Part shown: one piece after another, positions 14,985 through 52,379 of the stretch
Layout: every line of letters starts with the position of its first letter
How positions within the stretch are numbered: the first letter of the stretch is position 1
Assembly: GCA_002162685.1 (NCBI GenBank)
Contig: MAAQ01000020.1
Location: 310,001-374,000 of the forward strand
Length of the DNA: 64,000 nucleotides
Source: Flavobacteriales bacterium 33_180_T64
GTDB lineage: Bacteria > Bacteroidota > Bacteroidia > Flavobacteriales > Flavobacteriaceae
Reading direction: 5' to 3'
Position numbers and translations under genes: made by a program
The notes under the pieces: model-generated
The model's input: the letters and a program-made list of their open reading frames with translations, nothing else
Databases searched by the model: none
Told to the model about the DNA's origin: nothing

Positions 14985-15073
14985 ACTCGTCGACACTTAA
15001 ATGCAATTCACCTACACTTAATTTGCCTTAAACGAAAAGCCTTTAATCTTTTACTTGAATTGAAGTAACTTTA
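14985..15073 (+). promoter_or_regulatory. Triple 21-bp-period repeat promoter P1 (single receiver gene)
   Basis: Three 16-mers start exactly 21 bp apart: ACTCGTCGACACTTAA (14985-15000), ATTCACCTACACTTAA (15006-15021) and CTTAAACGAAAAGCCT (15027-15042). After 23 bp comes a -7 box TAACTTTA (15066-15073); the ATG is at 15100. All copies have C at position 7 and A at position 9. The same layout precedes seven other transcription units in this window. The 21-bp period places repeats on one DNA face, as for LytTR-type activators. Confidence 0.7.
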
Positions 15074-15099
15074 TTTTTAATAATTAATAATCTCTCTCA

Positions 15100-15513
15100 A
15101 TGAATAAAAAAATGAAAGTTCTTTTAATAGAAGATGATGCCATAGAAGTAATGAAATTAAATAGAACGATAACATCGTTAAAACTTAATCACCACATCAT
15201 AGAAGCAAATAATGGAGAAGAAGCTCTTAATATTTTACAAGAAAAAAAGGGGCTTCCAGATATTATTTTATTAGATTTAAACATGCCTAAAATAAATGGG
15301 ATAGAATTTTTGGGTGTTTTAAAAAATGATGTAAGACTTAAATACATTCCAACTATTGTTTTAACAACCTCTAATAATCAAAAAGATTTATTAGAGTGTT
15401 ACAAAATTGGTATTGCTGGCTATGTTTTAAAGCCTTTAAAGTATGAAGAGTATATGTCTAAAATTGAAAAATTACTAGCATATTGGAGTGTAAATGAATT
15501 AATAAAAGTGTAA
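15100..15513 (+). CDS. Single-domain response regulator (Rcp1/CheY-like)
   Basis: A 137-residue receiver without an output domain. The acidic pocket ED-D lies at residues 11-13, the phospho-acceptor is D59 in LLDLNMPKING, the switch Thr is in TIVLTTSNNQ, and the Lys is in GYVLKPL. The alpha-helical tail matches Rcp1-like receivers that partner phytochrome-type kinases. The kinase gene follows 82 bp later, then Hpt and LytTR genes, so it is well placed as the intermediate receiver of a phosphorelay. It has the triple-repeat promoter P1. Confidence 0.92.
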   Translation: MNKKMKVLLIEDDAIEVMKLNRTITSLKLNHHIIEANNGEEALNILQEKKGLPDIILLDLNMPKINGIEFLGVLKNDVRLKYIPTIVLTTSNNQKDLLECYKIGIAGYVLKPLKYEEYMSKIEKLLAYWSVNELIKV

Positions 15514-15595
15514 TAAATAAAAGGAAAATTTAATTCTATAACGCCCCTTGAATTGGAAAATTGAACCCAATAGGATTTATTACTAAAAAAAATTA

Positions 15596-17692
15596 ATGAG
15601 TCAAGACGAACTTGAGATACTAAAGCGAGCTCTAATAAGAGAAAAGCAATCTAGAAAAGCTGTAGAAAATAGTCTTGAAAAAAAATCTACCGAGCTTTCC
15701 AACGTTATACTACAACTTAAAGAGTCTAATGGAAATCTAGAAAATTTATTAGACGAGAAAAAAACGGAACTACAAGGTGTTTTTGAAAATATTAATGATG
15801 CTTATATTGTTATTGCTCTTAATGGAAATGTGCTGAGAATGAACAATGCAGCTGTTGATCTTTTTGGTTATGATATTGAAAAAGAAAAGTTCAATGTCAC
15901 AAAACTTATATATAAAGAAGACGAAGCATATACCTTAAAATCTTTTAAAAAATTAAAAGAAAAAGGAACCTTTGTAGATTATACAGCAAGAGTTTTTACG
16001 AAACAGGAAAAGGTAAGATGGGTGCATATTAACGCAAGTGTTATTTATGATAAGCATCAAACACCTGTTGCTGCTCAAGGAATAATAAAGGATATTACCG
16101 ATGCTATGCGAAAGACAGCATTAATAGAAGAACAAAAGAAAGAACTAGATGTAATTGTTCAAAATTCGTCATTAGGAATTGTGCTTACGCAATCCGGTAG
16201 AATTATTAGAACCAACCAAGCCATTCAGAGAATATTAGGCTATTCAGATGAAGAGCTATCAACATTAACCATTAAAGATGTCTCTTTTGAAGAAGATTTT
16301 CATGAATCTAAAGAGTATCTTGAAAGAATGGACTCTGGTGAGATTGAGAATTTTGTTATCAATAAAAGATACAGAAAGAAAGATGGCTCGGTTCTTTGGG
16401 CTAAAACAAATGTAAATGTAGTTCGAGATTTTATTGGAAATATTAAATACCAAGTCGCTTTAATAGAAGATGTAACATTTGAAAGAGAACGATCATTAAT
16501 CATAAATGTTATTAATGATATTGCTAAAGCTATTCTCGGAAAAATGAATATTTATGAGATAGCTTGGGAAATTACCAATAGTATCGCTCAATATTTAGGA
16601 ACACAAGATTGTGTGATCTATTTGGTTGATTATAAGAGTGATACTTTAGAGCAGATTGCTGCATTTGGAGAAAAGCTAGATAAAGAAAAACATATAGCCA
16701 ATAAGATTATATTACCAATAGGAAAAGGTATTGTTGGTCATGTGGTTTTAACAGGGAAATCGGAAATTATTGGGAATACAAGTAAAGATGAACGCTATGT
16801 TATAGATGATAAAGAAAGACTTTCAGAAATTACGGTGCCAATTATTAGTGAAGGTGTTGTGATTGGTATCATTGACTGTGAGCATGAAAGTAAAAATTAC
16901 TTCAGAAAAGAACATTTAACAACACTTGAGAGTATTGCAAACCTGGTAGCGATGCAACTTAAAAGCGCTATAAATATAAGAGAGCGAGAAAACGCTGAGG
17001 CCAAAAATATTTTGCTCTTAAATGAGTTAGGTAAAAGTAATGACGAATTACAGGAATATGCACATATTATTTCACACGATTTAAAATCGCCATTACGTAG
17101 TATAGATGCATTAGTGAGTTGGATTAAAGAGGATAATAAAGGGAAGTTAGATGAGGTAAGTCTTCAAAATTTTGCTCATATCGAAAATACACTTGAAAAA
17201 ATGGAAAGGTTAATTTCAGATGTTTTAACGTATTCAAGTACAGGTGCTAATAATTTAGAAAAAGTTGATGTAGATATAAATGAATTAGTTCATGATTTGG
17301 TAGATATCTTATATATCCCAGAGCATATAGAAGTGAAATTATTAAATACATTACCAATAATTAAAGGCGATAAAACCAAACTTCATCAATTGTTTCAAAA
17401 CCTTATTAGTAATGCTGTAAAGTTTATAGATAAAGAACACGGTAAGATAGAAATTGATGTTATTGAGGATACAGAATTTTTTAAGTTTTCTATAAAAGAT
17501 AATGGCATTGGTGTCGATAAGAAATTTCATAATAAAATTTTCAAAATTTTTCATACACTTAAGAGCAGTAAAAAATCTTCAGGAATTGGTCTTTCAATAG
17601 TTAAGAAAGTAGTTAATTTACATGGAGGAAAAGTGTGGTTAGATAGTGAAATAGGTAAAGGCACTACATTTTATTTCACTTTAAAAAAATAA
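15596..17692 (+). CDS. Sensor histidine kinase, PAS-PAS-GAF-HisKA-HATPase
   Basis: A 698-residue soluble kinase without membrane helices. Order: coiled coil (1-60), PAS 1 (about 60-170, ending IKDITDA), PAS 2 (about 185-295, with NKRYRKKDGSVLWAK and IEDVT), GAF (about 305-460), a dimerisation helix with H494 in ISHDLKSPLR, then the ATPase with N box NLISNAVKFI, DNGIGVD, SSGIGLSIVKK and GKGTTFYFTL. The HDLKSPLR box is the type found in phytochrome-like kinases. No fused receiver is present; the receiver, Hpt and LytTR proteins are encoded next door. The signal is cytosolic and unknown. Confidence 0.93.
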   Translation: MSQDELEILKRALIREKQSRKAVENSLEKKSTELSNVILQLKESNGNLENLLDEKKTELQGVFENINDAYIVIALNGNVLRMNNAAVDLFGYDIEKEKFNVTKLIYKEDEAYTLKSFKKLKEKGTFVDYTARVFTKQEKVRWVHINASVIYDKHQTPVAAQGIIKDITDAMRKTALIEEQKKELDVIVQNSSLGIVLTQSGRIIRTNQAIQRILGYSDEELSTLTIKDVSFEEDFHESKEYLERMDSGEIENFVINKRYRKKDGSVLWAKTNVNVVRDFIGNIKYQVALIEDVTFERERSLIINVINDIAKAILGKMNIYEIAWEITNSIAQYLGTQDCVIYLVDYKSDTLEQIAAFGEKLDKEKHIANKIILPIGKGIVGHVVLTGKSEIIGNTSKDERYVIDDKERLSEITVPIISEGVVIGIIDCEHESKNYFRKEHLTTLESIANLVAMQLKSAINIRERENAEAKNILLLNELGKSNDELQEYAHIISHDLKSPLRSIDALVSWIKEDNKGKLDEVSLQNFAHIENTLEKMERLISDVLTYSSTGANNLEKVDVDINELVHDLVDILYIPEHIEVKLLNTLPIIKGDKTKLHQLFQNLISNAVKFIDKEHGKIEIDVIEDTEFFKFSIKDNGIGVDKKFHNKIFKIFHTLKSSKKSSGIGLSIVKKVVNLHGGKVWLDSEIGKGTTFYFTLKK

Positions 17693-17696
17693 TTTG

Positions 17697-18014
17697 ATGG
17701 AACAACCTAATTTGTCTTACATATATAGTATGTCTGGTGGTGATAAAGCTTTTGAGCAAAAGTTAATAGTCATTATTAAAGATGAATTTCCAGAGGAGAA
17801 AAATGTTTATTTTCAAAACATTAGTGCTAAAAATTATAAACTTGCCGCAGATAATGTTCATAAACTTAAACATAAAATTAGTATTTTAGGGCTAGAGAAA
17901 AGTTATGAGATTGCTGGAGCATTCGAAAATAATCTATTGGAAGGGCATACTAAACTTCAAAAAGAATTCGAATCTATTTTAACAACCATAACTAATTATT
18001 TACAACACTTATAA
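17697..18014 (+). CDS. Histidine phosphotransfer (Hpt) protein
   Basis: A 105-residue all-helical protein. H55 in NVHKLKHKISILGL matches the Hpt motif H-x-L-K; the usual following Gly is replaced by His. It starts 4 bp after the kinase stop; a TTG one codon earlier is not needed. Hpt domains shuttle phosphate between receivers, so this protein can link the single receiver and the LytTR regulator downstream (10-bp gap). Confidence 0.85.
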   Translation: MEQPNLSYIYSMSGGDKAFEQKLIVIIKDEFPEEKNVYFQNISAKNYKLAADNVHKLKHKISILGLEKSYEIAGAFENNLLEGHTKLQKEFESILTTITNYLQHL

Positions 18015-18024: not shown

Positions 18025-18738
18025 ATGAATTGTATTATTATAGATGATGAAGCTACAGCAAGAGCGATTATTAGACAATTGTGCTCTAATATAGATAGTC
18101 TTAATGTTTTAGAAGAATTTCCAAATGCATTACAAGCCATTAAATATTTAAATCAAAATGAAATTGATTTAATTTTCTTAGATATTCATATGCCAGATTT
18201 TACAGGGTTTGATTTTATTGAAACCGTAAAAAATCCACCAAAAATTATTTTGACCACATCAGATGCTAATTTTGCTATTCAAGCTTTTGAGTATGATTGT
18301 ATTGTAGATTACTTAGTAAAACCTATTACTCCAGAACGTTTTCAAAAAGCTATTCAAAAAGCAAAAACTACATCAGGTAAAACAGCAACTTATAATCCAT
18401 TATCTGAGAAAATAGAAACAGCTTCAGGCAATGATTTATATGTAAACATAGACAGACGTCTAATTAAAATAGATATTCCAAGTATTTATTTGGTTGAAGC
18501 CAAAGGGGATTATATTCAAGTTAAAACCGAAGCTAAAAATTATACAGTACACTCTACATTAAAAAAGATTGAAGAGAAATTACCTGATGATTTATTTCTT
18601 AAAATACATCGTTCTTATATTATTAATGTTCACGAAATTATAGATATTGAAGACAATAGTGTCCTTATTAAAAAGAACGTTATACCTGTAAGTCGTTCCA
18701 ATAAACCAGAGTTAATGAAACGTCTTAATTTGCTCTAA
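18025..18738 (+). CDS. LytTR-type response regulator
   Basis: A 237-residue protein with a receiver (1-118; DDE at 7-9, phospho-acceptor D53 in LIFLDIHMPDFTG, Lys in DYLVKPI) and a LytTR DNA-binding domain (about 135-237; LIKIDIPSIYLVEAKGDYI, FLKIHRSYIINVHEI, VPVSRSNKPEL). LytTR domains bind direct repeats of about 9 bp one face of DNA apart, giving 21-22-bp periods. It is the last gene of the kinase-Hpt-LytTR operon, and a 21-bp triple repeat begins 6 bp after its stop codon. It is the best candidate regulator of the eight repeat-bearing promoters. Confidence 0.93.
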   Translation: MNCIIIDDEATARAIIRQLCSNIDSLNVLEEFPNALQAIKYLNQNEIDLIFLDIHMPDFTGFDFIETVKNPPKIILTTSDANFAIQAFEYDCIVDYLVKPITPERFQKAIQKAKTTSGKTATYNPLSEKIETASGNDLYVNIDRRLIKIDIPSIYLVEAKGDYIQVKTEAKNYTVHSTLKKIEEKLPDDLFLKIHRSYIINVHEIIDIEDNSVLIKKNVIPVSRSNKPELMKRLNLL

Positions 18739-18743: not shown

Positions 18744-18831
18744 TCTTATCGATACATACTTGCATTCTATCTAATCAATGAAATGATTGAACGAAAACTA
18801 ATCTATCATTTTGTGATTGACGTTATATTTG
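18744..18831 (+). promoter_or_regulatory. Triple 21-bp-period repeat promoter P2 (putative small RNA)
   Basis: Repeats TCTTATCGATACATAC (18744-18759), TTCTATCTAATCAATG (18765-18780) and ATTGAACGAAAACTAA (18786-18801), then 22 bp and a perfect -7 box TATATTTG (18824-18831). No gene starts within the next 190 bp, but an intrinsic terminator lies about 45 bp downstream of the expected transcription start. Confidence 0.65.
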
Positions 18832-18925: not shown

Positions 18926-19013
18926 CCTTAACTAAGCCTAATCTCCACTGGTCTACACTTCTTTTTAATCTATCGAAAATTAAGTTTTCATCGATAGTCT
19001 AGATTTACTTTTA
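18926..19013 (+). promoter_or_regulatory. Triple 21-bp-period repeat promoter P3 (DUF4114 secreted protein)
   Basis: Repeats CCTTAACTAAGCCTAA (18926-18941), ACTGGTCTACACTTCT (18947-18962) and ATCTATCGAAAATTAA (18968-18983), then 22 bp and the -7 box TACTTTTA (19006-19013). The ATG at 19032 leaves a very short leader. An inverted pair CTATCG (18970-18975) / CGATAG (18992-18997) also lies here. Confidence 0.68.
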
Positions 19014-19031: not shown

Positions 19032-21482
19032 ATGAAAAAGATCCTACTATTAGTATTCGCGACGACGACACTACTTAATGCTCAGAATTATCAATTTCTT
19101 GGAGACTATACAGCTAATGGAACACCATTGTATTTAGAAAATCCAGGAGATAATGTATCAGGAGTAACATTGCAAATGATTGATGACGCTTTGCCAGAAA
19201 GTTATCCAGTTCCTGATTACAATCCACATTATATATCATCTGGCTATGAAACCGATTTAATTATTAATCAAACGGCCGAGGTCTGGGTCACGTTTATTAG
19301 TGAAGGCGCAGGTTACCGAAATGTACTAGGGTTTTACACCTATGATGTTAATAACCCTTCTCCTACGGCACCTCTAACAGAAGAGATAACGATTATATTT
19401 CCTAATGCTTCAGCACTTTATAGTGGAGGAGGGTTACAAGTAGGCGATAAGGTTAAATTAGGAACCTTTGAAGCTGGAACTGGAATTGGTTGGGTATTAC
19501 TGGCTAATGCTTGGAACTCAAGTACCAGTACTGTTGGCAATGGACTTTGGAAACTGTATTCTAATCCAGACTATAATCCAGAAGCACAAGCAGATTTAAG
19601 ATATCATAATGTCCTTTTAAATGATCCAGATTACGAACGTGTTATTCTTGGGTTTGAAGATATAAGACGAGATTATAACTCTTGTGATAATGATTTTAAT
19701 GATGCTATTTTTTATGTAACAGCTAATCCCTATGATGCTATAATAACTACAAATTTTGCTGATGTCTCTAGCGCAAGTAATGTGACCTCTGGAAATGATG
19801 GAGGTTTAGAAAGTAATGGAAATTTGGCAAGTTTAATTGCAAAAAGAAATTTTAAACGGAAGCAAACAGGTAATGCCTTTAACAAAAAAGGATTGCAAAC
19901 CATCTACAGCAGGCAAACATATACGGCCCAAAATGATACAACTACAACAGGTTTAGAAAACTATATCCCAGATACAGGAATGTATGGTACAGAAACAGCT
20001 TATGTGTCTAGTCCAACCGATTTATTAGACATCACTAATGCTACTGAAATATTCTCTGTCGATTTTTATCAAGACGAGACAAGAGTGTCTGCTGTATTAG
20101 CAACAACAACGGAAGGTTCAGTTTACGATCATTCTAAAATGATTTGTGATCGATTAAATAATTCAGTTCTCGAAGATATAAGAACTGTTACGGTTAGAGG
20201 ACATCAAATTATAAGTTCTAAAATAATACGTGCTACTGGAGAAACTGAACATACATTAAGTTTTTCTGTGAAGCTTGGAGAATTAACCAATGAATTATAT
20301 AGCCTCTGGACTATTGAACAATATCCTGAAGGAGATTTTTATAATTTTCAAATTTGGGGAAATTATCCTTCACAAGTATTTACAATTGCGAATCATATAA
20401 TAGATACGCTCACTTTAGAGAAACCATTAAATAGTGAAATACTAAGCGATGTCATTCCTCCTGTATTTGTGAGTTCAGGTTATTATGCTAATGGAAATAT
20501 TCATTTAAACATTATAAATAAAGTAAGTGTAAATGCAATCACTTTTAATGCAAGTACTGCTGCTACTGAGGTTGCTGAAAGAGTTGAAACATCTCAAATA
20601 ATAGCCTTAAATGGCGAATGGAATGATACAGTAACCATCACAACAGGGCAATTGTTTGATATAGGATTTTCATTAAGCACTAACGTTTCTATGCAACAAG
20701 ATGCGTTATATCTAGCTGATGGCCCTTGGGGAATTGATTACTTAGAAGATGATGTGACTGTTGAATTGTTTCATGTTGAAAATAATACGTTAAACTTTAA
20801 CCCAGAAGTATATCAAATTGAAAGACAACCAAGTGTTAACGGACAAGTGAAAGGCACAATTAATCTTTTTAGACATGTGTTACCAGGAGAACAAACGCTT
20901 GATGTGTCTAATTATAGCGCATTTCAATTCCGTATCAAAAATACTCAACCTATTGAGGTGATATTAATGCAAGATGGTTTAATGGATTGGAATAATCGTT
21001 TCCGATTTACAATTTCAGAAAATGCAGAGGATACTTTTTATAATATCACTTTCAATGATTTTGTTGATGGAGCCGGAAACTCAGCTACACTTACAGATGT
21101 GAAAACTATTGTATTCTCATTACAAGGTGATTATAATAATTATGTGCCTTTTGAAATACAAGTTGATGAGGTCGCTTTTGGTTCTGCCGAAACATTGCAG
21201 GTTAATACATTTGAAGATAGAGATACTACAAATAGATTATCTGCTATTCCTAATCCAATGACATCAAGTACAACAATACATTTTAATGCTAAGAAAACTG
21301 AAATGGTACAATTTGTAGTCTATAATCAATTAGGAAAACTTGTATATCAAGAAAATTATAGAACTGCATTTGGTGAAAATGAAATCTTAATTCATAGAAA
21401 TAATCTAAGTACAGGTATTTATTTCTGTAAAATACTAAGTCAACAAGCCTTATATACTCCCCTAAAATTAATTACTAGATAG
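19032..21482 (+). CDS. Large secreted protein with DUF4114 domain and type IX secretion sorting tail
   Basis: An 816-residue protein with signal peptide MKKILLLVFATTTLLNA. A DUF4114 domain ends near residue 235 with the acidic, probably calcium-binding motif FEDIRRDYNSCDNDFNDAIFY. A hinge DGGLESNGNL (about 256-266) leads to a 460-residue beta-rich module shared with the next gene (DLLDITNATEIF, PPVFVSSGYYANG, DGPWGIDYLEDD). The C-terminus (about 735-816) is a type A sorting domain: LSAIPNPMTSSTTIHF, VVYNQLGKLVY, LSTGIYFCKIL, KLITR. It should be exported through the outer membrane and anchored or released. Expression from P3 ties it to the adjacent LytTR phosphorelay; an adhesin role is inference. 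Confidence 0.88.
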   Translation: MKKILLLVFATTTLLNAQNYQFLGDYTANGTPLYLENPGDNVSGVTLQMIDDALPESYPVPDYNPHYISSGYETDLIINQTAEVWVTFISEGAGYRNVLGFYTYDVNNPSPTAPLTEEITIIFPNASALYSGGGLQVGDKVKLGTFEAGTGIGWVLLANAWNSSTSTVGNGLWKLYSNPDYNPEAQADLRYHNVLLNDPDYERVILGFEDIRRDYNSCDNDFNDAIFYVTANPYDAIITTNFADVSSASNVTSGNDGGLESNGNLASLIAKRNFKRKQTGNAFNKKGLQTIYSRQTYTAQNDTTTTGLENYIPDTGMYGTETAYVSSPTDLLDITNATEIFSVDFYQDETRVSAVLATTTEGSVYDHSKMICDRLNNSVLEDIRTVTVRGHQIISSKIIRATGETEHTLSFSVKLGELTNELYSLWTIEQYPEGDFYNFQIWGNYPSQVFTIANHIIDTLTLEKPLNSEILSDVIPPVFVSSGYYANGNIHLNIINKVSVNAITFNASTAATEVAERVETSQIIALNGEWNDTVTITTGQLFDIGFSLSTNVSMQQDALYLADGPWGIDYLEDDVTVELFHVENNTLNFNPEVYQIERQPSVNGQVKGTINLFRHVLPGEQTLDVSNYSAFQFRIKNTQPIEVILMQDGLMDWNNRFRFTISENAEDTFYNITFNDFVDGAGNSATLTDVKTIVFSLQGDYNNYVPFEIQVDEVAFGSAETLQVNTFEDRDTTNRLSAIPNPMTSSTTIHFNAKKTEMVQFVVYNQLGKLVYQENYRTAFGENEILIHRNNLSTGIYFCKILSQQALYTPLKLITR

Positions 21483-21599: not shown

Positions 21600-21687
21600 A
21601 TTCATCTACAGTAAATAGCATACTAACGAACCAATAAATACTTCAATCGAAATTTGTTAAAAAAAGGGTTCTAAGCTAATACATTTG
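21600..21687 (+). promoter_or_regulatory. Triple 21-bp-period repeat promoter P4 (second secreted protein)
   Basis: Repeats ATTCATCTACAGTAAA (21600-21615), TACTAACGAACCAATA (21621-21636) and TTCAATCGAAATTTGT (21642-21657), then 22 bp and the consensus -7 box TACATTTG (21680-21687). The ATG is at 21714. Confidence 0.72.
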
Positions 21688-21713: not shown

Positions 21714-24311
21714 ATGAATAGACTTTACGTTTTAAGACATCAGTTAATGATATACAGCTTTGTACTGCTTGGTTTTACTATTCAGGCACAAGATATTCCA
21801 TTTAATTGCGATTATAACGCTTACTTATTTCAGTTTAATGATATCTATGCGATAGATTTAGCTTCAGGGAGTTCGTATGAAGTGGCTACCGATATTACAT
21901 CTGGAAGTATTAATGCGGCAGCTTACAATCCTGCTGATGGTTTTATTTGGGGATCCTTAAGTACTCCAGCTAAAACAATTGTTCGTATTGGAAAAAATTT
22001 TACAACAACTACTTTTTATGTTGATGAGTTACCAACCAATAATCGTTATGTTGGCGATGTAAGCGCTCAAGGTATTTATTATCTTAAAGGCGGAGGAACC
22101 ACCTATTATAAAATAGATCTCGATCCTAGTTCGGCTACTTATACACAACATCAAGCAACAGAAACTTTATCGCAAAGTGTAACTATTCATGATTGGGCTT
22201 TTAATGCTGTCGATGGACAATTGTATACAGTAGAGAAAAATTCAAATATTTTATATCGTATTGACCCTTCAAATGGAGCTGTGCAATCTTTAGGAGAAAT
22301 CCCAATTCTATCAGGTTTAAATTACACATATGGTGCTGTCTATTTTGATGTGTCTGGTCGTTTCTATGTGTCTGCAAATCAAACAGGAACTATTTATGTA
22401 ATTCAAAATGTGCAAACATTGGATGGAATAATAACAATGGATTCCAACCTTTTTGCTTTTGGTCCATCGAGTTCTAGTAACGATGGTGCGCGTTGCCCTA
22501 CAGCACCTGTGCCACAAGAAATATGTGATAATGGTATTGACGATGATGGTGACGGACTTGTAGATTGCGAGGATCCTTCGTGTTCAGGTTATGGTGAATG
22601 TGCTGTGATTGACCCACCAACTTCTGGAGGTGATGATGGTGGTTTAGAAAGTAATAATAGATTGTCTGAAAAAATCAATAAACGAAACTTTAATCGTACA
22701 AGAACAGGTTACAAATTTAATAAGAATACAGCAAGACGCGTTGTAAGATCATCAAGCTATTTACAACGAAATGCAAATTCTGAATTTACTTTACAAGATT
22801 TTATTCCTCTTGAAATAATTAATGAAGATGAGGTTATCGAGTCGACACCTTTAGATTTATTAAACATCACGAATGCAACTGATATTTATGCAGTTGATTA
22901 TCTAAAAAATACAACTACTATAGCATCTATAATTGCTCTAAAAACAGAAGATGGTGTTTATGAACATACCAAATACATTTGCGATAGACTCTTAGGAGCA
23001 GAGCTGATTTCAGTATCAACAATTGATATTAACGGACAAGCATTTATAAAATCAATAATCAAAAACGTTGATGGTGCGTATGAGTTTGTATTAAGTCTTT
23101 CAGCGAAAGTTGTAAATAATGAAGAGAATTTTGCGATAGAAAGCCATTGGAATCTTGATCGATATGAACAAGATGTTACGTTTTATAATTTCCAAATTTG
23201 GTCAAACACTTTAGACGATTTATATCTATTAGGAGAAGAAGTATTGAATTTACTCGATATTGAAAAGACAATTTCAGACTATGACAATTCATCACCTCCA
23301 CCAGTTTTTGTTAGAAAAGGAAAGTATGTTGATGGCGCCTTAGATTTGCAAATTATAAATACAAATGTAACGGAGAGTATCACTTTTGATGCAGGTTTTA
23401 GAATAACAGAAACAAGTGAGTTTGATACTCTAAACTCTACTATAGTTCTTAACGAAGATTATATAACCAATCTACAACTAGAAACAGGAAGTCTTTTTGG
23501 TATTGGATTTAGAATAGGTGATGGTATTGCAACACCAGATGATTTATTTATGTCTGATGGTCCTTGGGGAATTGACGATTCACAACCAGATACAACTATT
23601 GATACGTATGCTATTTTGCCTAACGATTTTACATTTGATAGCAATGATTTTAGAATAGAACGTAATGTTGTCTTAAAAGCTACGACAAGTAGTTATGTAG
23701 CTGTGTATAGAGCTTTGACGCCAAGATTTAAACCTATTGATCTTAGTGACTATAATAATATAAAATTTAGTGTAAAAGGTACAGGAATATTAGATATTAC
23801 GTTGATAAAACAAGGTATTTCTAATTGGAATGAACATTACAAAACGAGTATCACATTAACCAATACATTTCAGGACTTTGTATTACCTATTACAAGTTTT
23901 GAATCGATTAATGAGGGAAATCTTGTGCTGGATGATGTGATAAGCGTTGTGTTTACAATGGTAAGTGAAGATGGTACAACAACCATCAAAGAAATGACTT
24001 TAGAAAATTTACGTTTTTCTCAAAATACTTTATCTGTAAACCAATTAGAAAAGGAAATGACAAAATTGTCTGCGATACCAAATCCAATGACATCAAGTAC
24101 AACGATTCGTTTTAATGCGAAGCAAACTGAAATGGTGGAATTTGTAATCTATGACCAAATAGGGAAAGTAGTATACCAAAAAAAGTATAGAGTCACTTTT
24201 GGTGAAAATGAAATTTCACTTGATAGAAATAACATAAGTGCGGGTATTTATTTTTGTAAAATTATAAGCGAAAACACCTTATATAGCCCTTTAAAATTAA
24301 TTGCTAGATAA
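21714..24311 (+). CDS. Large secreted protein, DUF6923-like N-terminus, type IX secretion sorting tail
   Basis: An 865-residue protein with signal peptide ending FTIQA (about residue 25). Residues 30-255 look like a DUF6923-type propeller (AAYNPADGFIWGS, DWAFNAVDGQLYTV, YGAVYFDVSGRFYVSANQTG). A calcium-binding-like motif CDNGIDDDGDGLVDCEDPSC follows at about 270. From GGDDGGLESNNRL onward it parallels the preceding protein to the end (DLLNITNATDIY, SDGPWGIDD, LSAIPNPMTSSTTIRF, ISAGIYFCKII, KLIAR). The two genes are thus paralogues with exchanged N-terminal domains. It has its own repeat promoter P4. Confidence 0.87.
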   Translation: MNRLYVLRHQLMIYSFVLLGFTIQAQDIPFNCDYNAYLFQFNDIYAIDLASGSSYEVATDITSGSINAAAYNPADGFIWGSLSTPAKTIVRIGKNFTTTTFYVDELPTNNRYVGDVSAQGIYYLKGGGTTYYKIDLDPSSATYTQHQATETLSQSVTIHDWAFNAVDGQLYTVEKNSNILYRIDPSNGAVQSLGEIPILSGLNYTYGAVYFDVSGRFYVSANQTGTIYVIQNVQTLDGIITMDSNLFAFGPSSSSNDGARCPTAPVPQEICDNGIDDDGDGLVDCEDPSCSGYGECAVIDPPTSGGDDGGLESNNRLSEKINKRNFNRTRTGYKFNKNTARRVVRSSSYLQRNANSEFTLQDFIPLEIINEDEVIESTPLDLLNITNATDIYAVDYLKNTTTIASIIALKTEDGVYEHTKYICDRLLGAELISVSTIDINGQAFIKSIIKNVDGAYEFVLSLSAKVVNNEENFAIESHWNLDRYEQDVTFYNFQIWSNTLDDLYLLGEEVLNLLDIEKTISDYDNSSPPPVFVRKGKYVDGALDLQIINTNVTESITFDAGFRITETSEFDTLNSTIVLNEDYITNLQLETGSLFGIGFRIGDGIATPDDLFMSDGPWGIDDSQPDTTIDTYAILPNDFTFDSNDFRIERNVVLKATTSSYVAVYRALTPRFKPIDLSDYNNIKFSVKGTGILDITLIKQGISNWNEHYKTSITLTNTFQDFVLPITSFESINEGNLVLDDVISVVFTMVSEDGTTTIKEMTLENLRFSQNTLSVNQLEKEMTKLSAIPNPMTSSTTIRFNAKQTEMVEFVIYDQIGKVVYQKKYRVTFGENEISLDRNNISAGIYFCKIISENTLYSPLKLIAR

Positions 24312-28570: not shown

Positions 28571-28659
28571 GTTAAGCATTCAAGTTTAATCATTCACCTA
28601 TAGCAATTGTCTACTCGTCGAAATTCATCAGAAACCAAAAAGTTTCTAAGTGATATTTG
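28571..28659 (+). promoter_or_regulatory. 21-bp-period repeat promoter P5 (STAS-STAS-flippase operon)
   Basis: Two strong repeats, ATTCACCTATAGCAAT (28592-28607) and ACTCGTCGAAATTCAT (28613-28628), and one weak one at 28571-28586 (GTTAAGCATTCAAGTT). After 23 bp comes GATATTTG (28652-28659), one base from the -7 consensus. The second repeat is identical to the first P1 repeat in its first nine bases. The region is shared with the divergent TPR/barrel gene. Confidence 0.62.
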
Positions 28660-28699: not shown

Positions 28700-28978
28700 A
28701 TGGCTTTACAAATCTTAGAAAACAACGGAACATTTAATTTACAAGGAAGTTTAAACGCAACAACAACGCGATTTTTTATCATCCATTTCGAGTATCTCAT
28801 TAATTCAGTTAAAGATGTTACTGTAGATATAGGGGAACTTAAAAATATTGATTCAAATGGTGTTGAAGCTTTAAAAACATTAATGGCAATTGCATTAAGA
28901 AACAATAATGTTTTTTCTGTAATTGGTGATGGATGTAAAGATATTTATGATGACTATAGAAGCTCATTCGCTGCCTAA
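28700..28978 (+). CDS. STAS-domain protein (anti-sigma factor antagonist-like), Asn at the phospho position
   Basis: A 92-residue single STAS domain starting MALQILENNGTFNLQGSL. The conserved loop reads NIDSNGVEALKTL. In SpoIIAA the phosphorylated Ser directly precedes the Gly of DSSG; here that residue is Asn, so serine-kinase control is probably absent. In-frame sequence upstream to 28607 overlaps the promoter and is not conserved with the two sibling proteins, hence the ATG at 28700. STAS proteins act as switchable binding partners of anti-sigma factors or enzymes. It heads an operon with a second STAS gene and a flippase. Confidence 0.85.
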   Translation: MALQILENNGTFNLQGSLNATTTRFFIIHFEYLINSVKDVTVDIGELKNIDSNGVEALKTLMAIALRNNNVFSVIGDGCKDIYDDYRSSFAA

Positions 28979-28995
28979 TATTAAAATTAGAAATC

Positions 28996-29301
28996 ATGAA
29001 CTTACAAATATTAAACAACCAAGGAACTTTTGAAATACATGGTGATTTCATTGAAGGAAATACAGATAAAGTAAGACAGTATTTTGATAATTTATTAGAT
29101 AGGTATTATGAAATCGTGATTTGCTTAAAGCAAGTAAAACGAATAGACAATTCTGGACTTAGTGTTATGAAGTTCATAACTCAAAAAGCAACCAAACGAA
29201 GTAAAACATTGTTTGTATTAGGAGACCAGAATAAGAGAATTATAAAAAAGTTTAAAAATGCTAATTTGAGTACTATTTTCAAAAATGATTATACAAGCTA
29301 A
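28996..29301 (+). CDS. STAS-domain protein (anti-sigma factor antagonist-like), Ser at the phospho position
   Basis: A 101-residue paralogue of the preceding protein (MNLQILNNQGTFEIHGDF). The loop reads RIDNSGLSVMKFI, so Ser stands directly before Gly as in phosphorylatable SpoIIAA-type proteins. No serine kinase or phosphatase of the RsbW/SpoIIE kind is encoded in the window. Its last 17 bp overlap the start of the flippase gene, so the two are translated together, which suggests a STAS protein working with polysaccharide assembly. Confidence 0.87.
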   Translation: MNLQILNNQGTFEIHGDFIEGNTDKVRQYFDNLLDRYYEIVICLKQVKRIDNSGLSVMKFITQKATKRSKTLFVLGDQNKRIIKKFKNANLSTIFKNDYTS

Positions 29302-30538
29302 CATATTGAAGACAAAAATAACTCCAGAGCAGTTTTTTATGCTTAGTGTTCTAGCTGTTAATGGAGGGAACTATCTGTATAACCTTATTCTTGGTCGTGT
29401 ATTAGGACCAGAGCAATTTGCAGATGCTGCAGTATTAATTACCTTTTTATTGGTATTATCTTTTGTAGCGATGACATTTCAATTAGTGACCGCTAAATTT
29501 TTAGTCATTTTTGAAAACAAGATACTTGCTAGTTTTATTTCCAAAATTTATAAAAAAGCAATATTTGCTGGAATTAGTTTAGGGATTTTGATTATTATAT
29601 TTTCTAACCAATTGCAACAGGTGTTTAACACATCATCATCAAGCATGTTTGTGATTTTTGGAATAGGTGTACCAATCTACTTTTTAATGAGTGTGAATCG
29701 AGGTGTTTTTCAAGGGAAAAAAGCATTTAAACCGTTATCAATAACGTACCAAGCTGAAATGCTAAGTAGATTATTAATCACACTAGGTTTAATCTTTTTG
29801 TTGAATATACAATCTTCTATAGTAATTGCTATTGGGATTTTAATCTCATTTGTTTTTGGGTTATTACCATTTAAATTAAAAAACATAAAGCTTAAAACAA
29901 CTGTACAAATTGATACAGGTCAATTTAAACAAGTACGTCAATTTTTTATCATTACAGCGTTTTATGAACTCACTCAAATTATCATAAATAATAGTGATAT
30001 ACTTTTAGTAAAGCACTATTTTGAGTCTTATGATGCAGGATTATATGCCTCATTGGCTTTAATTGGACGTATTGTATATTTTATTGCCTGGATGTTTGTA
30101 ATGTTATTATTACCTACAGTTGTTCAGCTTAAAAAAGAAGGTAAGCCTACAGTACCAATTTTATTTAAATATGTTGGTTATATCGCAATAATTGCATCAC
30201 TAATTATTTTTATGTGTGTGTTATTTCCTGAAACTGCTATAACGCTTTTATTTGGAAACAGTTATTTAGCAATGGCACCTTTACTTTGGAAATATGCTTT
30301 AGCTACAGGTTTATTCGCCATCTCAAATATATTTGTATACTACTACTTGTCATTAGATCAATATATTCCTGTTATTTTTTCGGGTGTTTTTGGGTTATTT
30401 CAAATGGGACTCGTTGTTTTTTTTCATAATAGTTTGGAGCAAATTGTTCATGTGCAAATTGTTGCGATGGTATTGATGCTTGTTTTTCAGGTTGTTTACT
30501 TCATATATAATTCTAAATCGAAATTAATTCAAGACTAA
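29285..30538 (+). CDS. Oligosaccharide flippase (Wzx/MATE-like)
   Basis: A 417-residue protein with about twelve hydrophobic helices. The N-terminus shows the polysaccharide-biosynthesis signature LYNLILGRVLGPEQFADAAVL, with later conserved YFESYDAGLYASLALIGR and FGNSYLAMAPLLWKYALATG. Family members flip lipid-linked oligosaccharides across the inner membrane. It is cotranscribed with two STAS genes and followed by a GT4 gene with its own promoter. Confidence 0.88.
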   Translation: MIIQANILKTKITPEQFFMLSVLAVNGGNYLYNLILGRVLGPEQFADAAVLITFLLVLSFVAMTFQLVTAKFLVIFENKILASFISKIYKKAIFAGISLGILIIIFSNQLQQVFNTSSSSMFVIFGIGVPIYFLMSVNRGVFQGKKAFKPLSITYQAEMLSRLLITLGLIFLLNIQSSIVIAIGILISFVFGLLPFKLKNIKLKTTVQIDTGQFKQVRQFFIITAFYELTQIIINNSDILLVKHYFESYDAGLYASLALIGRIVYFIAWMFVMLLLPTVVQLKKEGKPTVPILFKYVGYIAIIASLIIFMCVLFPETAITLLFGNSYLAMAPLLWKYALATGLFAISNIFVYYYLSLDQYIPVIFSGVFGLFQMGLVVFFHNSLEQIVHVQIVAMVLMLVFQVVYFIYNSKSKLIQD

Positions 30539-30622
30539 ATCGAAAGCTTTATTCCATTCATCTACAGTAAGAGGTATCCTGTCTAAAGTTAAAAGATTTA
30601 GTTGGTTTTTAATGCAAATTTG
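30535..30622 (+). promoter_or_regulatory. Triple 21-bp-period repeat promoter P6 (GT4 gene)
   Basis: Repeats CTAAATCGAAAGCTTT (30535-30550, starting inside the flippase stop region), ATTCATCTACAGTAAG (30556-30571) and TCCTGTCTAAAGTTAA (30577-30592), then 22 bp and CAAATTTG (30615-30622), one base from the -7 consensus. The ATG is at 30699. Confidence 0.68.
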
Positions 30623-37779: not shown

Positions 37780-37867
37780 AATCATCTACAGTAATAGACC
37801 ATTCATCTACATGAAGTGTTTGATTAACTAAATACCCTTTTTTTAAGCATCATCTCAATTACTTTTG
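37780..37867 (+). promoter_or_regulatory. Triple 21-bp-period repeat promoter P7 (receiver-GT2 fusion)
   Basis: Repeats AATCATCTACAGTAAT (37780-37795), ATTCATCTACATGAAG (37801-37816) and GATTAACTAAATACCC (37822-37837), then 22 bp and the consensus -7 box TACTTTTG (37860-37867). The first two copies are the best matches between neighbours in the window. The region is shared with the divergent GT-C-like gene. Confidence 0.74.
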
Positions 37868-37897: not shown

Positions 37898-39070
37898 ATG
37901 AGAGTATTAGTGATAGATGACCAGCAATTAGTATTACTACCTATACAGAAGCATTTAGTAAAGTTAGGATACGATGTAAAAACAGAAACAGATTCTACTA
38001 AAGGATTAAAGTTATATGATTCATTCAATCCTGATTTGGTAATTGTAGATATTAATATGCCTAGAATTTCGGGTTTAGATATCGTTAAATATATTAGAGA
38101 AACTAAAAGATCTCAAACACCTATAATGATTTTGTCTGGGAATACTCAAGATGTAACCATTACAAAAGGTTTTGAATTAGGAATTAATGACTATATGAAA
38201 AAACCTTTAAGTTTAAATGAGATTTGTGCTCGTGTAAAACGATTAATTGGAGCGCCTAAAATGCAAAGTGAAGTTAAAACAAGTAATGTCTTGATACAAG
38301 AACTGTGCGTTGGAGTTGTGATTCCTTGTTATAATGAAGAAGAACGATTATTGAGTAAAGCATTCACAGATTTTATTGATAGAAACTCTGGATATCACCT
38401 GTGCTTTGTTAACGATGGAAGTAAAGATAAAACTCTAGAAGTATTATACGATTTACAAAAAGGAAGAGAAGATCTTATTACAGTTTATAATTGTGAAAAG
38501 AATGGAGGAAAAGCAGAAGCCGTACGTTTAGGAATGCTACACATGGCAAAAAAAGAAGGACTTGACTATATTGGTTTTTTAGATGCCGATCTATCTACTG
38601 ATTTAGCTAATTTTGATGATCTTGTTAAAACGATAGAACATTCAGATTTTAAAATTGTAAGCGGTTCTAGAATCTCAAGAATGGGAGCAAACATTACTAA
38701 AGAATCGGCAAGAAAAATAATTAGTTTGACGATCAATTTCATTATTAGAAAAGTGTTGTCATTAGATTTTAAAGATACACAGTGTGGTGCTAAAATATTT
38801 AGTAAAGATATTATCGAAATCGTTTTTAGTGAAAAATTTGTTACACGATGGATTTTTGATGTTGAAATATTTAAAAGAATCACACAGTATTTCGGATTGG
38901 AAAAAGCTAAAACAATGCTTTGTGAAAAACCATTGAGAAGATGGGTTCATGTAGATGGATCTAAGTTATCCATGAAAGATTCCATAAAAATAGTAGGACA
39001 ATTAGTACAAATAGCATGGGTCTATAGAACTAAAAAAACTACAGATTCAACGAAGCTTAGAGTGGTTTAA
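37898..39070 (+). CDS. Receiver domain fused to a family 2 (DPM1/ALG5-like) glycosyltransferase
   Basis: A 390-residue protein. Residues 1-118 are a complete receiver: DDQ at 7-9, phospho-acceptor D51 in LVIVDINMPRISG, switch Ser in IMILSGNTQ, Lys in MKKPL (101-102). Residues about 138-375 are a GT2 domain of the dolichyl-phosphate-sugar synthase type: VVIPCYNEEERLL, FVNDGSKDKT, NGGKAEAVRLGM, FLDADLST, IVSGSR, DTQCGAKIF and WIFDVEI. Such enzymes load hexose onto polyprenyl phosphate. No membrane helix is seen. The fusion implies that phosphorylation directly controls sugar-lipid synthesis. Start chosen at the ATG at 37898; the upstream in-frame TTG overlaps the -7 box. Confidence 0.9.
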   Translation: MRVLVIDDQQLVLLPIQKHLVKLGYDVKTETDSTKGLKLYDSFNPDLVIVDINMPRISGLDIVKYIRETKRSQTPIMILSGNTQDVTITKGFELGINDYMKKPLSLNEICARVKRLIGAPKMQSEVKTSNVLIQELCVGVVIPCYNEEERLLSKAFTDFIDRNSGYHLCFVNDGSKDKTLEVLYDLQKGREDLITVYNCEKNGGKAEAVRLGMLHMAKKEGLDYIGFLDADLSTDLANFDDLVKTIEHSDFKIVSGSRISRMGANITKESARKIISLTINFIIRKVLSLDFKDTQCGAKIFSKDIIEIVFSEKFVTRWIFDVEIFKRITQYFGLEKAKTMLCEKPLRRWVHVDGSKLSMKDSIKIVGQLVQIAWVYRTKKTTDSTKLRVV

Positions 39071-42837: not shown

Positions 42838-42838
42838 A

Positions 42839-50083: not shown

Positions 50084-50089
50084 AGGATT

Positions 50090-52144
50090 TTAATTTTTAA
50101 GTAATAACATTATAATATGTGCAGCACTCCAACTGAAATTTTGAGCATGCAACCCTTCACCTGTTAACGGATGATAATTTTCTCTTATAGATTGCCCTTT
50201 TTCTAAAAGACCCTCTGCGCCTTCTAAGATTTGTATAGTCGCTTTATTTGCATCATCATTAAAGCCATAGTTTCGTAAGCCTTTCACACCAAAATAAGCT
50301 TGATCTAACCAATTTGGGCCTCTCCAATAGCCTTTTAAGGGTGCGAATTTTTCATGATCTGCACTCATTGTTTGAAAAGGAACCTTAGTAAAGAATTTTT
50401 CGGGATTCATCATTTTATTCTTAACGGCTTCTGCTTGTTTTTGCGTTGCTGCATTAGCCCAAAGTGCAGTCCAGCCTTCACTTCCTTCACCCTTTATGAA
50501 TAGTGTTCCTTCTATATTAGTATCATAAAACCAACCGTCTTTTTCATCGTAAAATTGGGTTTGAATTTTAACTTTTAATTGCTTGGCTTCATTTACTAAT
50601 GTTATTGAGTCATCTGGTTTTTGTAAAGCACTAGCCAATTCAGCTAAATAAAGTTTTTCGGCATAGAGGTAAGCATTTAAATCTACGCTTTCTTGATTAA
50701 TAGAATATGCGTTTTGCGAGTTTTTTAAAATTTTGGAATTGTCAAACCGAATAGCGTTATCCATTCCACTTTCCCATTTAGCTGCAATTAAACTCCCGTC
50801 TGTTGAGCCATATTCACATAAGCCATCATTATCATGATCTCGTTTTTTATACCACCAATAATGATACTTTTTTAGTTTAGGGTACATTTCTTTAATAAAT
50901 GAAATGTCATGATCTTTTTTATAAATTTTTGAAACAGCCCAGACCGAAAGAGGAGGTTTTGTATCGCGATAATTATGCTTTTCGATTAGGGTATCTCTGT
51001 AAACACAATCGGCAACAAATCCGTCATCATTTTGAAACTCAAACATAAGTTTCATTTGTTTTTTTGCTAAAGCAGTGTTATAATATGATAAGCCAACAGC
51101 ATGTTTCCAAGAATCCCAAGACCAAAAGCCATTAAACCATTTGTAATGATAACTAGGAAACAGACCTTCATGTTTTATTTCTCCAGCTGGTAAACGCCAA
51201 TTATTTTGAAGTGTTAAGTGTGCTTTTGCTAAAACTTGAGCATACTTATCATCTTGAAATGGTGTTTTTCTATTATTTATTAGAGATTCAAGTTGTATCT
51301 TCTTTTCCGTTTTTTTTAAATTTAAAACGGAATCAAAATCTACATTAGCAATTAGTTTTTTCTCACTTTCCCATGAATATTCTGGAAATATAAAAGTTTG
51401 AGAAATAGTGATTTCTTTAGATTCGTTTGGTTGAAGGTTTAATGTTTTTAAGTGAATAGTATAAAACCTGTTTTCAACTAGATTATGATCAATTAATTCA
51501 ATGTCATTTTTTGTTCTGATATAACCAACAGCAGATGATTTTTCAGAATGTAATTTAATACCGTTATTCTCTTTTGATATTGTTATTCCAATATTAGAAA
51601 TGGTCCCTTGAATACTAGTGTTTAATTGAATAGAACGTTTTGAAATATTAGTAATAGTTGTTCGTTGCAAAGCAGTATGACCTGACATAAAAACAAGTTC
51701 TTGTTTTAATTGTATGCTCTCACTTTTAAATGTTTGTTCTAAATGACTTGTATAACTGTATTGTTCTTTAAGATCACTTTTGATATCTAACAGCGGTTTT
51801 TTATTCTGTCCAGTAGTAAAATACAATTTTGACAATGAACGACTACTCCAAATACCATTTTGTTGCGTCATTAAAAAAGGACCAGAAAAACCAATTATGG
51901 GATCTTCTGTTTTAGGCAAACTATATGCAAACCATGCGCCTTGATCTGAGAACATCAAACCTGATTTGTCTAAAGAATCTTTTGGAGTAATATGATAATC
52001 AAGTACATTTTTGCTATAGGTTAAATATTTTTTTTTAATAGGATTCTTTTGTTTGCAACTATAAACAATGACACTCATTAATAAGCATAATATTAGTGCG
52101 CTTTCTTTTGTGATAAGTAGAGATGAAAAAAACCTTCGAATCAT
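50090..52144 (-). CDS. GH63/GH37-like glycoside hydrolase lipoprotein
   Basis: A 684-residue protein with a lipoprotein signal ending SVIVYSC. An N-terminal beta domain (about 45-290) precedes an (alpha/alpha)6 barrel (about 295-684) with GH63-type motifs: FNGFWSWDSWKHAVGL, KWESGMDNAIRF (containing the general acid Asp of this clan), YWRGPNWLDQAYFGVKGL and ENYHPLTGEGLHAQNFSWSAAH (containing the base Glu). Relatives cleave alpha-glucosides or mannosylglycerate. Anchored outside the cytoplasm, it likely attacks imported or surface oligosaccharides. Confidence 0.85.
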   Translation of the reverse strand: MIRRFFSSLLITKESALILCLLMSVIVYSCKQKNPIKKKYLTYSKNVLDYHITPKDSLDKSGLMFSDQGAWFAYSLPKTEDPIIGFSGPFLMTQQNGIWSSRSLSKLYFTTGQNKKPLLDIKSDLKEQYSYTSHLEQTFKSESIQLKQELVFMSGHTALQRTTITNISKRSIQLNTSIQGTISNIGITISKENNGIKLHSEKSSAVGYIRTKNDIELIDHNLVENRFYTIHLKTLNLQPNESKEITISQTFIFPEYSWESEKKLIANVDFDSVLNLKKTEKKIQLESLINNRKTPFQDDKYAQVLAKAHLTLQNNWRLPAGEIKHEGLFPSYHYKWFNGFWSWDSWKHAVGLSYYNTALAKKQMKLMFEFQNDDGFVADCVYRDTLIEKHNYRDTKPPLSVWAVSKIYKKDHDISFIKEMYPKLKKYHYWWYKKRDHDNDGLCEYGSTDGSLIAAKWESGMDNAIRFDNSKILKNSQNAYSINQESVDLNAYLYAEKLYLAELASALQKPDDSITLVNEAKQLKVKIQTQFYDEKDGWFYDTNIEGTLFIKGEGSEGWTALWANAATQKQAEAVKNKMMNPEKFFTKVPFQTMSADHEKFAPLKGYWRGPNWLDQAYFGVKGLRNYGFNDDANKATIQILEGAEGLLEKGQSIRENYHPLTGEGLHAQNFSWSAAHIIMLLLKN

Positions 52145-52312
52145 TTAATTTTTACTATATGAAAAGTAAAAGTAACCAATATTAAAGACTATTTTATATA
52201 AAAGTGATTTCTATACTTGTAAATAGATAAGAATGCTTTAAGGCTATTAAAGCTGTGTTTTGTAATGTGTTTATAACGTGTTGTTTATCGGGTAAAAAAG
52301 ACCATTTATAAT

Positions 52313-52379
52313 CTAAAACCAACCAATGATACATTTAATCGAAAATATAATAGAATTGCTGTTTTATTTTAGATATTTA
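52313..52379 (+). promoter_or_regulatory. 21-bp-period repeat promoter P8 (third STAS gene)
   Basis: Two repeats, CTAAAACCAACCAATG (52313-52328) and TTTAATCGAAAATATA (52334-52349), then 22 bp and GATATTTA (52372-52379), a weak -7 box. A third copy 21 bp upstream (52292) is not convincing. The first copy resembles the middle P4 copy, sharing AAC, AACCAAT. It is the only member of the set outside the 15-38 kb area. Confidence 0.5.

What the first reader, a model, noticed from the sequence alone, without database searches (positions are those of the whole stretch)
14985..52379. Eight promoters share a 21-bp-period direct-repeat architecture: a candidate LytTR regulon for surface polysaccharide and adhesion
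Seen directly: degenerate 16-mers start exactly 21 bp apart before eight transcription units (14985/15006/15027; 18744/18765/18786; 18926/18947/18968; 21600/21621/21642; weak 28571, then 28592/28613; 30535/30556/30577; 37780/37801/37822; 52313/52334). C at position 7 is constant and A at position 9 nearly so (the weak 28571 copy has T); the approximate consensus is wTTCATCKAMAnTWAA. In all eight the last repeat is followed after 22 bp (six cases) or 23 bp (15.1 and 28.6 kb) by a TAnnTTTR-like -7 box. Known: LytTR regulators bind direct repeats at about this period; on the minus strand the best copies contain ACTGTAGAT, which agrees with most of the published LytTR consensus. Inference: the LytTR regulator at 18025-18738 controls all eight units, tying receiver, secreted proteins, STAS, flippase, GT4, receiver-GT2 and a small RNA into one programme.
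Basis: partly seen in the sequence, partly recalled or inferred. Interest (0 to 1): 0.92.

Follow-up and report, generated by a model that had tools for sequence, protein, structure and literature searches.

The report
LytTR regulon for surface sugars
A cluster of promoters in a marine bacterium shares a repeated DNA landing site that is very probably used by one neighbouring switch protein to turn on sugar-coat genes, secreted surface proteins and a small RNA together, and the same arrangement is found in many related bacteria.

Summary
A matrix trained only on the window finds 273 sites of the same architecture on the coding strand of 72 other LytTR-ortholog loci (72 of 72), 3 on the other strand, 0.5 in shuffles; the 21-bp period is specific. 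Seven promoters (A-G) hold up; E has two repeats, H is open. In 149 family genomes all 24 with the promoter also carry this LytTR regulator; 0 of 88 without it do, though 37 of 61 with it gave no match at the strict cut. Twenty-five other LytTR loci give no convincing match. The regulon inference is well supported; binding is untested. Corrections: the better LytTR likeness is + strand CCATTCRTC, close to the AlgR box; no -33 element is seen, so activation next to -35 is likely. Additions: phosphotransfer residues of REC-HK-Hpt-LytTR are invariant; in five other loci the repeats precede an unrelated Wzx/Wzy-type cluster; a putative small RNA follows lytTR. The kind is known (LytTR repeats; RcoM/CoxC triplets); three searches found no such flavobacterial regulon described.

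The parts
14985..15073 (+). Promoter A: repeats 14985/15006/15027, -7 box 15066-15073; before the receiver gene 15100-15513
   Evidence: found by R1 at E 7e-11 though not in its training set; receiver-type promoters in 69 of 72 outside loci
15100..15513 (+). Single-domain receiver protein (REC)
   Evidence: Pfam Response_reg E 3e-22; phospho-Asp D59 in the best HSP of 72 of 72 loci
15596..17692 (+). Histidine kinase PAS-PAS-GAF-HisKA-HATPase, no transmembrane helix by hydropathy
   Evidence: Pfam; hydropathy; H494 in 67 of 67 alignments that cover it, 72 loci; in 7 of 9 relatives with the whole locus the best alignment covers only the kinase core
17694..18014 (+). Hpt-like phosphotransfer protein
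   Evidence: weak Pfam Hpt, E 0.0016, 19.1 bits against a cut-off of 24.6; H56 in 72 of 72
18025..18738 (+). REC-LytTR response regulator, the proposed activator
   Evidence: Pfam LytTR E 7e-21, REC E 2e-19; D53 in 72 of 72
18744..18831 (+). Promoter B: repeats 18744/18765/18786, -7 box 18824-18831; starts 6 bp after the lytTR stop codon
18836..18907 (+). Putative small RNA of about 72 nt from the lytTR 3' UTR, with a TTAATAGCA element and an intrinsic terminator; ends approximate
   Evidence: sequence and alignment A2; in 18 of 31 outside loci with a site near the lytTR end no ORF follows directly, 15 of these 18 with a detected terminator; no Rfam match
18926..19013 (+). Promoter C: repeats 18926/18947/18968, -7 box 19006-19013
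19032..21482 (+). Secreted protein, DUF4114 and T9SS sorting tail
   Evidence: Pfam
21600..21687 (+). Promoter D: repeats 21600/21621/21642, -7 box 21680-21687
21714..24311 (+). Secreted protein, DUF6923 and T9SS sorting tail
   Evidence: Pfam; homolog is the first ORF behind sites in 55 of 72 outside loci
28592..28659 (+). Promoter E: two repeats 28592/28613 and -7 box 28652-28659 (28571 copy not conserved)
   Evidence: only a partial R1 match, E 0.049; STAS-type promoters in 27 of 72 outside loci
28700..30538 (+). Presumed operon: STAS (start about 28700), STAS 28996-29301, flippase 29285-30538
   Evidence: Pfam (the first STAS is below its cut-off); the listed TTG start at 28607 lies upstream of the -7 box, so the ATG at 28700 is used
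30535..30622 (+). Promoter F: repeats 30535/30556/30577, -7 box 30615-30622
   Evidence: GT4-type promoters in 30 of 72 outside loci
30699..31910 (+). GT4 glycosyltransferase
   Evidence: Pfam
37780..37867 (+). Promoter G: repeats 37780/37801/37822, -7 box 37860-37867
   Evidence: best R1 match in the genome, E 2.9e-13, in the training set; outside loci mostly end before it
37898..39070 (+). Receiver fused to a polyprenyl-phosphate-sugar-synthase-like GT2
   Evidence: Pfam; GT part nearest in PDB to GtrB sll0501, ArnC, DPM synthase; phospho-Asp in 6 of 6 aligned, of 9 orthologs found
52313..52379 (+). Promoter H: one convincing repeat (52334) and -7 box 52372-52379; membership open
   Evidence: not found by R1
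52444..52722 (+). STAS protein behind H
   Evidence: Pfam

Best explanation
A phosphorelay (cytosolic PAS-GAF kinase, single receiver, Hpt, LytTR response regulator) made from one locus activates a local regulon. Phosphorylated LytTR protein binds two or three head-to-tail boxes (CCATTCRTCTACASTWAA; the promoter-proximal one is C[GT]AAAA) spaced two helical turns apart, the last next to -35, and helps the housekeeping sigma factor use a TAnnTTTG box that has no -33 element. Targets are the receiver gene of its own locus, a small RNA from the lytTR 3' UTR, secreted T9SS surface proteins, and a surface-polysaccharide set (STAS-STAS-flippase, GT4, receiver-GT2). Shown by sequence: site, period, spacing, strand, conservation and co-inheritance. 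Inferred: binding, activation, phosphotransfer, the RNA and the polysaccharide product.
For: Architecture beyond chance and strand-specific. Profile R1 finds six window promoters at E <= 2e-8 (five of them in its training set, A not) and one other place in the 3.75-Mb genome at E 5e-6; the next, promoter E in part, is at 0.049. Same genus: 11 of 11 genomes with the ortholog have it at E <= 3e-13, 0 of 11 without it below 6e-4 (R1 was trained on the 11). Family: 24 of 61 LytTR-positive and 0 of 88 negative genomes, Fisher 1.8e-11; without the training genomes G000 and G004, 22 of 59 and 0 of 88. Other LytTR loci: one match, 10 bits, in 25. The motif stays with LytTR where the sugar genes differ: G016 (P. 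burtonensis) has no receiver-GT2 match yet has the motif; five outside loci carry a Wzx/Wzy-type cluster with the motif before it. Between last repeat and -7 box columns carry at most 0.53 bits, the repeats up to 2.66. Phosphotransfer residues invariant where aligned.
Against: No binding or expression data. 37 of 61 LytTR-positive genomes gave no R1 match at the strict threshold (stricter filters). 27 LytTR matches in the genome, and similar CATCTAAA repeats elsewhere (G020, which lacks the ortholog; G023; own C1:118033). Weak R1 matches in genomes without a close ortholog: G001, G010, G020, G028, G036 (E 7e-4 to 0.006) and G023 (2e-5, LytTR 54% identical). H does not fit well. Hpt is below its Pfam cut-off. 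The minus-strand genes 26490-28547 and 31900-37717 show no site of their own at the threshold used.
Confidence: 0.87

Rival explanations
1. The repeats are bound by a different LytTR paralog, or by several sharing one specificity, and the adjacent regulator controls only part of the regulon.
For: 27 LytTR matches in the genome; related CATCTAAA repeats before a gene in G020, which lacks the ortholog; the ninth site C1:118033 has the same variant; 37 of 61 ortholog-bearing genomes without a strict match.
Against: All 24 promoter-bearing family genomes have this ortholog, no convincing match in 25 other LytTR loci, and sites start within a few bp of its stop codon in many species.
Confidence: 0.1
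2. The repeats are operators for repression: the protein sits next to -35 and blocks the promoters, as CoxC does at PcoxB.
For: Last repeat lies next to the -35 region; the CoxC triplet overlaps -35 and represses (PMC11347149, passages).
Against: No -33 element (TTG in 5 of 30, 4.7 expected) suggests promoters that need help; in the window the last repeat is always 22-23 bp from the -7 box; most LytTR regulators are said to bind upstream of -35 and activate (PMC11347149 passage).
Confidence: 0.12
3. The pattern is shared only by descent or chance in AT-rich intergenic DNA, without function.
For: The loci are homologous and intergenic DNA is AT-rich.
Against: 0.5 hits in shuffles and 3 on the other strand against 273; the stretch between last repeat and box is not conserved while repeats are; non-homologous genes carry it.
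Confidence: 0.01

Closest known systems
RcoM-1 / CoxC (LytTR regulators of cox genes)
   Same: three direct repeats about two helical turns apart near -35 (PMC11347149, passages seen)
   Different: CO-responsive regulators with TTCNNGCA-type repeats; CoxC has an MHYT membrane domain and represses; here a response regulator with CCATTCRTC repeats and a TAnnTTTG box
AlgR (Pseudomonas aeruginosa)
   Same: LytTR response regulator tied to exopolysaccharide; box CCGTTCGTC (PMC4064291, passages) differs by one base from CCATTCGTC
AgrA, YpdB, streptococcal LRS regulators
   Same: direct repeats of about 9-11 bp with 11-13 bp between (PMC4847170, PMC6193735, PMC4227749, passages)
   Different: two repeats, other promoter type, different repeat sequence
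Flavobacterial sigma-A promoters
   Same: -7 box TAnnTTTG (PMC9723704, passages)
   Different: no -33 element detected here; activator repeats lie just upstream of that place

Membership tests
LytTR response regulator | REC plus LytTR DNA-binding domain | tested here: met
   Pfam LytTR 74.7 bits (cut-off 22.6), REC 70.3 bits (cut-off 30.2)
LytTR response regulator | phospho-acceptor Asp in REC | tested here: met
   D53 in 72 of 72
LytTR direct-repeat operator | head-to-tail repeats about 21 bp apart upstream of the promoter | tested here: met
   period 21: 273 hits; 22: 25; others from 16 to 27 at most 8
LytTR direct-repeat operator | repeat sequence resembling a LytTR box | tested here: met
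   CCRTTCRTC (a degenerate form of the AlgR box, drawn up after seeing the motif) within 1 mismatch in 30 of 51 R2 and 19 of 51 R1 copies, background about 0.03%; R3 fits poorly (6 of 51)
LytTR direct-repeat operator | bound by the LytTR protein | not testable with these tools
   needs EMSA or DAP-seq
RcoM/CoxC-type triplet operator | three repeats | tested here: met
   A-D, F and G have three, the third weak in G; E has two
RcoM/CoxC regulators | CO-sensing N-terminal domain | tested here: not met
   N-terminal domain is a receiver
Bacteroidota sigma-A promoter | -7 box TAnnTTTG | tested here: met
   alignment A1 columns 85-92
Bacteroidota sigma-A promoter | -33 element TTTG or TTG (recalled) | tested here: not met
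   TTG in 5 of 30, 4.7 expected
HK-REC-Hpt-RR phosphorelay | conserved His and Asp at each step | tested here: met
   best HSP per locus: REC 72, HK 67, Hpt 72, LytTR 72, all conserved; Hpt itself under its Pfam cut-off
HK-REC-Hpt-RR phosphorelay | phosphotransfer in that order | not testable with these tools
   needs biochemistry
3'-UTR-derived small RNA | own promoter in the 3' UTR and terminator, no ORF | tested here: inconclusive
   promoter and terminator conserved in part of the loci; no RNA data

The most novel reading that the evidence does not exclude
One phosphorelay with two outputs: through LytTR it switches on a sugar-coat gene set, and through receiver domains fused to enzymes acting on polyprenyl-phosphate sugars it sets the activity of the enzyme directly. 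The idea recurs in two unrelated polysaccharide clusters under the same promoters: receiver-GT2 (GtrB/ArnC/DPMS-like) here, and a stand-alone receiver next to a pseudo-receiver fused to an initiating sugar transferase (Bac_transf) in Winogradskyella and Algibacter. A lytTR 3'-UTR small RNA carrying a genus-wide TTGATTAATAGCA element tunes the programme, perhaps as a decoy.
Probability: 0.25. Interest if true: 0.78.

Novelty: new variant of a known kind. Interest (0 to 1): 0.6.

Why it matters
This one genome has 27 LytTR matches. In three searches (listings only) no paper appeared that describes a LytTR binding site or regulon in Flavobacteriaceae. This case offers a site, a promoter rule (21-bp repeats, 22-23 bp to TAnnTTTG, no -33), a target list and a conserved set of phosphorelay proteins in many genera, and predicts how an activator replaces the -33 contact. 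It makes control of surface polysaccharide and T9SS proteins in marine flavobacteria directly testable.

Tried and rejected
Considered and rejected: chance AT-rich pattern. Minus-strand LytTR match: against a 9-bp LytTR consensus recalled from memory, the best register on + scores 6.2 of 9 and on - 5.8, background 4.5, so neither is decisive; the AlgR box was the better guide. Structure prediction of the 1029-aa membrane protein (34628-37717, minus) failed (mean pLDDT 38), so its GT-C-like look is recall only and no fold search was run. Rfam (gathering threshold, whole window) gave only a tRNA. Phage records gave no match to window 18740-19031. A paper search for the 12-mer TTGATTAATAGC listed two unrelated papers. 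The idea that TTGATTAATAGCA belongs to the LytTR regulon was dropped: it is enriched in 21 of 22 genomes of the genus, with or without this LytTR.
Full report
WHAT WAS CHECKED. The window is G000:C16:310001-374000 of a 3.75-Mb genome. Same-genus relatives match Psychroserpens contigs in length (G004, G007, G008, G016), so it is a Psychroserpens-like member of the Flavobacteriaceae. The counts of C at position 7 (23 of 23), A at position 9 (22 of 23) and the 22/23-bp distances to the -7 box are right.

CHANCE. Leave-one-promoter-out triple scores rank six of eight promoters at 2-6 of 127,886 positions; E ranks 74 and H 609. The stronger test used a window-only matrix on 72 loci around LytTR orthologs whose titles name other genera or none (80 fetched; dropped: L178, L179, L180, L188, L230, L250 from training genomes, L194 titled Psychroserpens, L218 a second place in the record of L216): 273 hits on the + strand in 72 of 72, 3 on the - strand, 0.5 in Markov shuffles; period 21 gives 273, period 22 gives 25, every other period from 16 to 27 at most 8. 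Distances 22 and 23 to the -7 box give the most hits (213 and 200), but other distances from 17 to 28 still give 97-155, so the repeats alone often pass the threshold. With profile R1, 342 matches at E <= 0.05 were found in the 80 loci; the 300 listed are all on the + strand, 42 were not shown.

WHICH GENES. For the 273 hits, the first ORF of 80 aa or more within 600 nt (else 50 aa) resembles: receiver 74 (69 loci), DUF6923 secreted protein 69 (55 loci; some lie beyond the small-RNA stretch), GT4 30, STAS 27, flippase 16, DUF4114 protein 5, the H STAS 2, receiver-GT2 1, and no window homolog 49. Flanks of 10 kb do not reach the places of G and H in most loci. Thus A, D, E and F recur in other genera. 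B recurs in two roles: of 31 loci with a site within 140 bp of the lytTR end, 13 run into an ORF within 30 nt of the predicted start and 18 do not; in 15 of the 18 a strict terminator is found within 130 nt.

WHICH REGULATOR. LytTR orthologs (81-89% identical) are in 10 of 21 same-genus relatives (G018 truncated at a contig end); the best match in the other 11 is about 40% or less. R1 finds all 11 positives including G000 (best E <= 3e-13) and no negative below 6e-4; three negatives have weak matches (G001, G010, G020), as do G023, G028 and G036 of other families. R1 was trained on promoters of all 11 positives, so this is partly circular; but receiver-type sites upstream of the first-fetched regions in G002, G004, G005, G007, G008, G013 and G019, and window promoter A, were not in the training set. 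In 149 genomes of the family (148 genera), 61 have the ortholog at E <= 1e-60 and 24 have R1 at E <= 1e-7; all 24 are among the 61 (Fisher 1.8e-11). The other 37 positives show none at that cut; this run used stricter filters and many of these orthologs are more divergent, so absence there is not proven. R1 on 25 loci of other LytTR genes gives one 10-bit match.

SAME SWITCH, DIFFERENT SUGAR GENES. P. burtonensis (G016) has no receiver-GT2 match at E <= 1e-40 and no syntenic cluster in the 40 kb read but keeps sites at the LytTR locus, plus two elsewhere before Ice_binding (PF11999) proteins. G018 also has no receiver-GT2 match, but its assembly is fragmented and an F-type promoter before the GT4 homolog is there. 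In 17 of 72 outside loci the window's flippase, GT4, TPR-porin and 1029-aa homologs are not found at E <= 1e-20; several of these loci are short. In five of the 17 (L185, L187, L208, L248, L249) a Wzx/Wzy-type set follows, in varying order and not all in each: UDP-glucose dehydrogenase, epimerase, receiver, receiver-like Bac_transf, outer-membrane protein, Wzc-like protein (Pfam GNVR under its cut-off), flippase, Wzy_C. Pfam was run on parts of L185, L208 and L249 only; L187 and L248 are read from their sequences. The fused receiver-like domain lacks the phospho-Asp in L185 and L249 (E and N in its place, by eye), so it is a pseudo-receiver.

PROMOTER ANATOMY. In 30 aligned promoters R1 and R2 read roughly CCATTCRTCTACASTWAA, R3 C[GT]AAAA; the -7 box is TAnnTTTG; the 22 bp between carry at most 0.53 bits a column and TTG at the -33 place is at chance (5 of 30, 4.7 expected). 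The + strand CCATTCGTC differs from the AlgR box CCGTTCGTC (PMC4064291, passages) by one base. Triplets about two turns apart are known for RcoM-1 and CoxC (PMC11347149, passages). R3 next to -35 with no -33 element suggests activation by contact with RNA polymerase; inference.

SIGNALLING. REC, HK, Hpt and LytTR lie in one locus; the phosphotransfer residues are invariant in the best HSP of each locus (REC 72, HK 67, Hpt 72, LytTR 72). In 7 of 9 Psychroserpens relatives with the whole locus the best alignment to the window HK covers only the kinase core, so the input seems to be swapped while the output is kept. The receiver-GT2 keeps its phospho-Asp in 6 of 6 aligned, of 9 orthologs found, and its GT part is nearest to GtrB, ArnC and DPM synthase in the PDB: polyprenyl-phosphate sugar synthases.

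SMALL RNA. Behind B lies a ~72-nt stretch with a [T/G]GATTAATAGCA-like element and a GGCAAAAG...CTTTTGCC-like terminator; by eye it is in 8 of 10 Psychroserpens loci (window, G004-G008, G016, G019), not in G002 and G013. Since B starts 6 bp after the lytTR stop codon, the RNA would be the lytTR 3' UTR made from its own promoter. The leader of the H STAS gene carries TTGATTAATAGCAA exactly in 5 of 10 loci, with one mismatch in 2, and altered in 3. That element is genus-wide: 58 copies with up to one mismatch in G000 against 12 for the reversed control, and an excess in 20 of the 21 other genus members. Of 29 copies of the 14-mer form (up to one mismatch), 21 are not inside an ORF of 100 aa or more and 7 have a terminator downstream (7 of 580 random positions).

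ONE OTHER SITE IN THE GENOME. C1:118033-118124 (minus), E 5e-6, before a 61-71-aa ORF and a 267-aa ORF, has a CATCTAAA variant; its regulator is uncertain.

LITERATURE. Searches for LytTR with Bacteroidetes, direct repeat and promoter; with Flavobacteri, polysaccharide and regulon; and with Flavobacteriaceae and exopolysaccharide listed one, none and two papers, none by its title on such a regulon; none of the three was opened. The papers cited above were seen as passages, none in full.

Noticed in passing
window 52393-52406 and 18860-18870; 58 places in the genome with up to one mismatch: TTGATTAATAGCA is a genus-wide element, 21 of 29 examined copies outside larger ORFs and 7 of 29 before a terminator, about 4- to 10-fold over its reversed control in 21 of 22 genomes of the genus; function unknown.
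   Followed up: partly
L185, L187, L208, L248, L249, downstream of lytTR: Receiver-like domain fused to an initiating sugar transferase (Bac_transf; Pfam-tested in L185 and L249), beside a stand-alone receiver, in a Wzx/Wzy-type cluster under the same repeats.
   Followed up: partly
L154:758-2077 (-), L155:1877-5500 (+) (G016, P. burtonensis): Ice-binding-like (PF11999) proteins, one of 1208 aa with repeats, sit behind the same promoter type.
   Followed up: partly
G006 and G018 regions (L043, L058), L173:4151-4441 and others: A small protein gene (about 94-132 aa; no Pfam match for the one tested, L173) with its own repeat promoter lies about 400-530 bp upstream of the receiver promoter in G006, G018 and 14 of 72 outside loci; not seen at that place in this window.
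   Followed up: partly
window 34628-37717 (-): 1029-aa membrane protein without a Pfam or NCBIfam match, 72-82% identical in seven relatives; looks GT-C-like by recall; structure model unusable.
   Followed up: partly
window 26490-28547 (-): TPR protein with a weak PgaA-like porin part, under that model's cut-off, divergent from promoter E; perhaps a polysaccharide exporter.
   Followed up: no
G000:C1:118033-118124 (-), locus L160: The only other strong promoter match in the genome, with CATCTAAA repeats, before a small ORF and a 267-aa ORF.
   Followed up: partly
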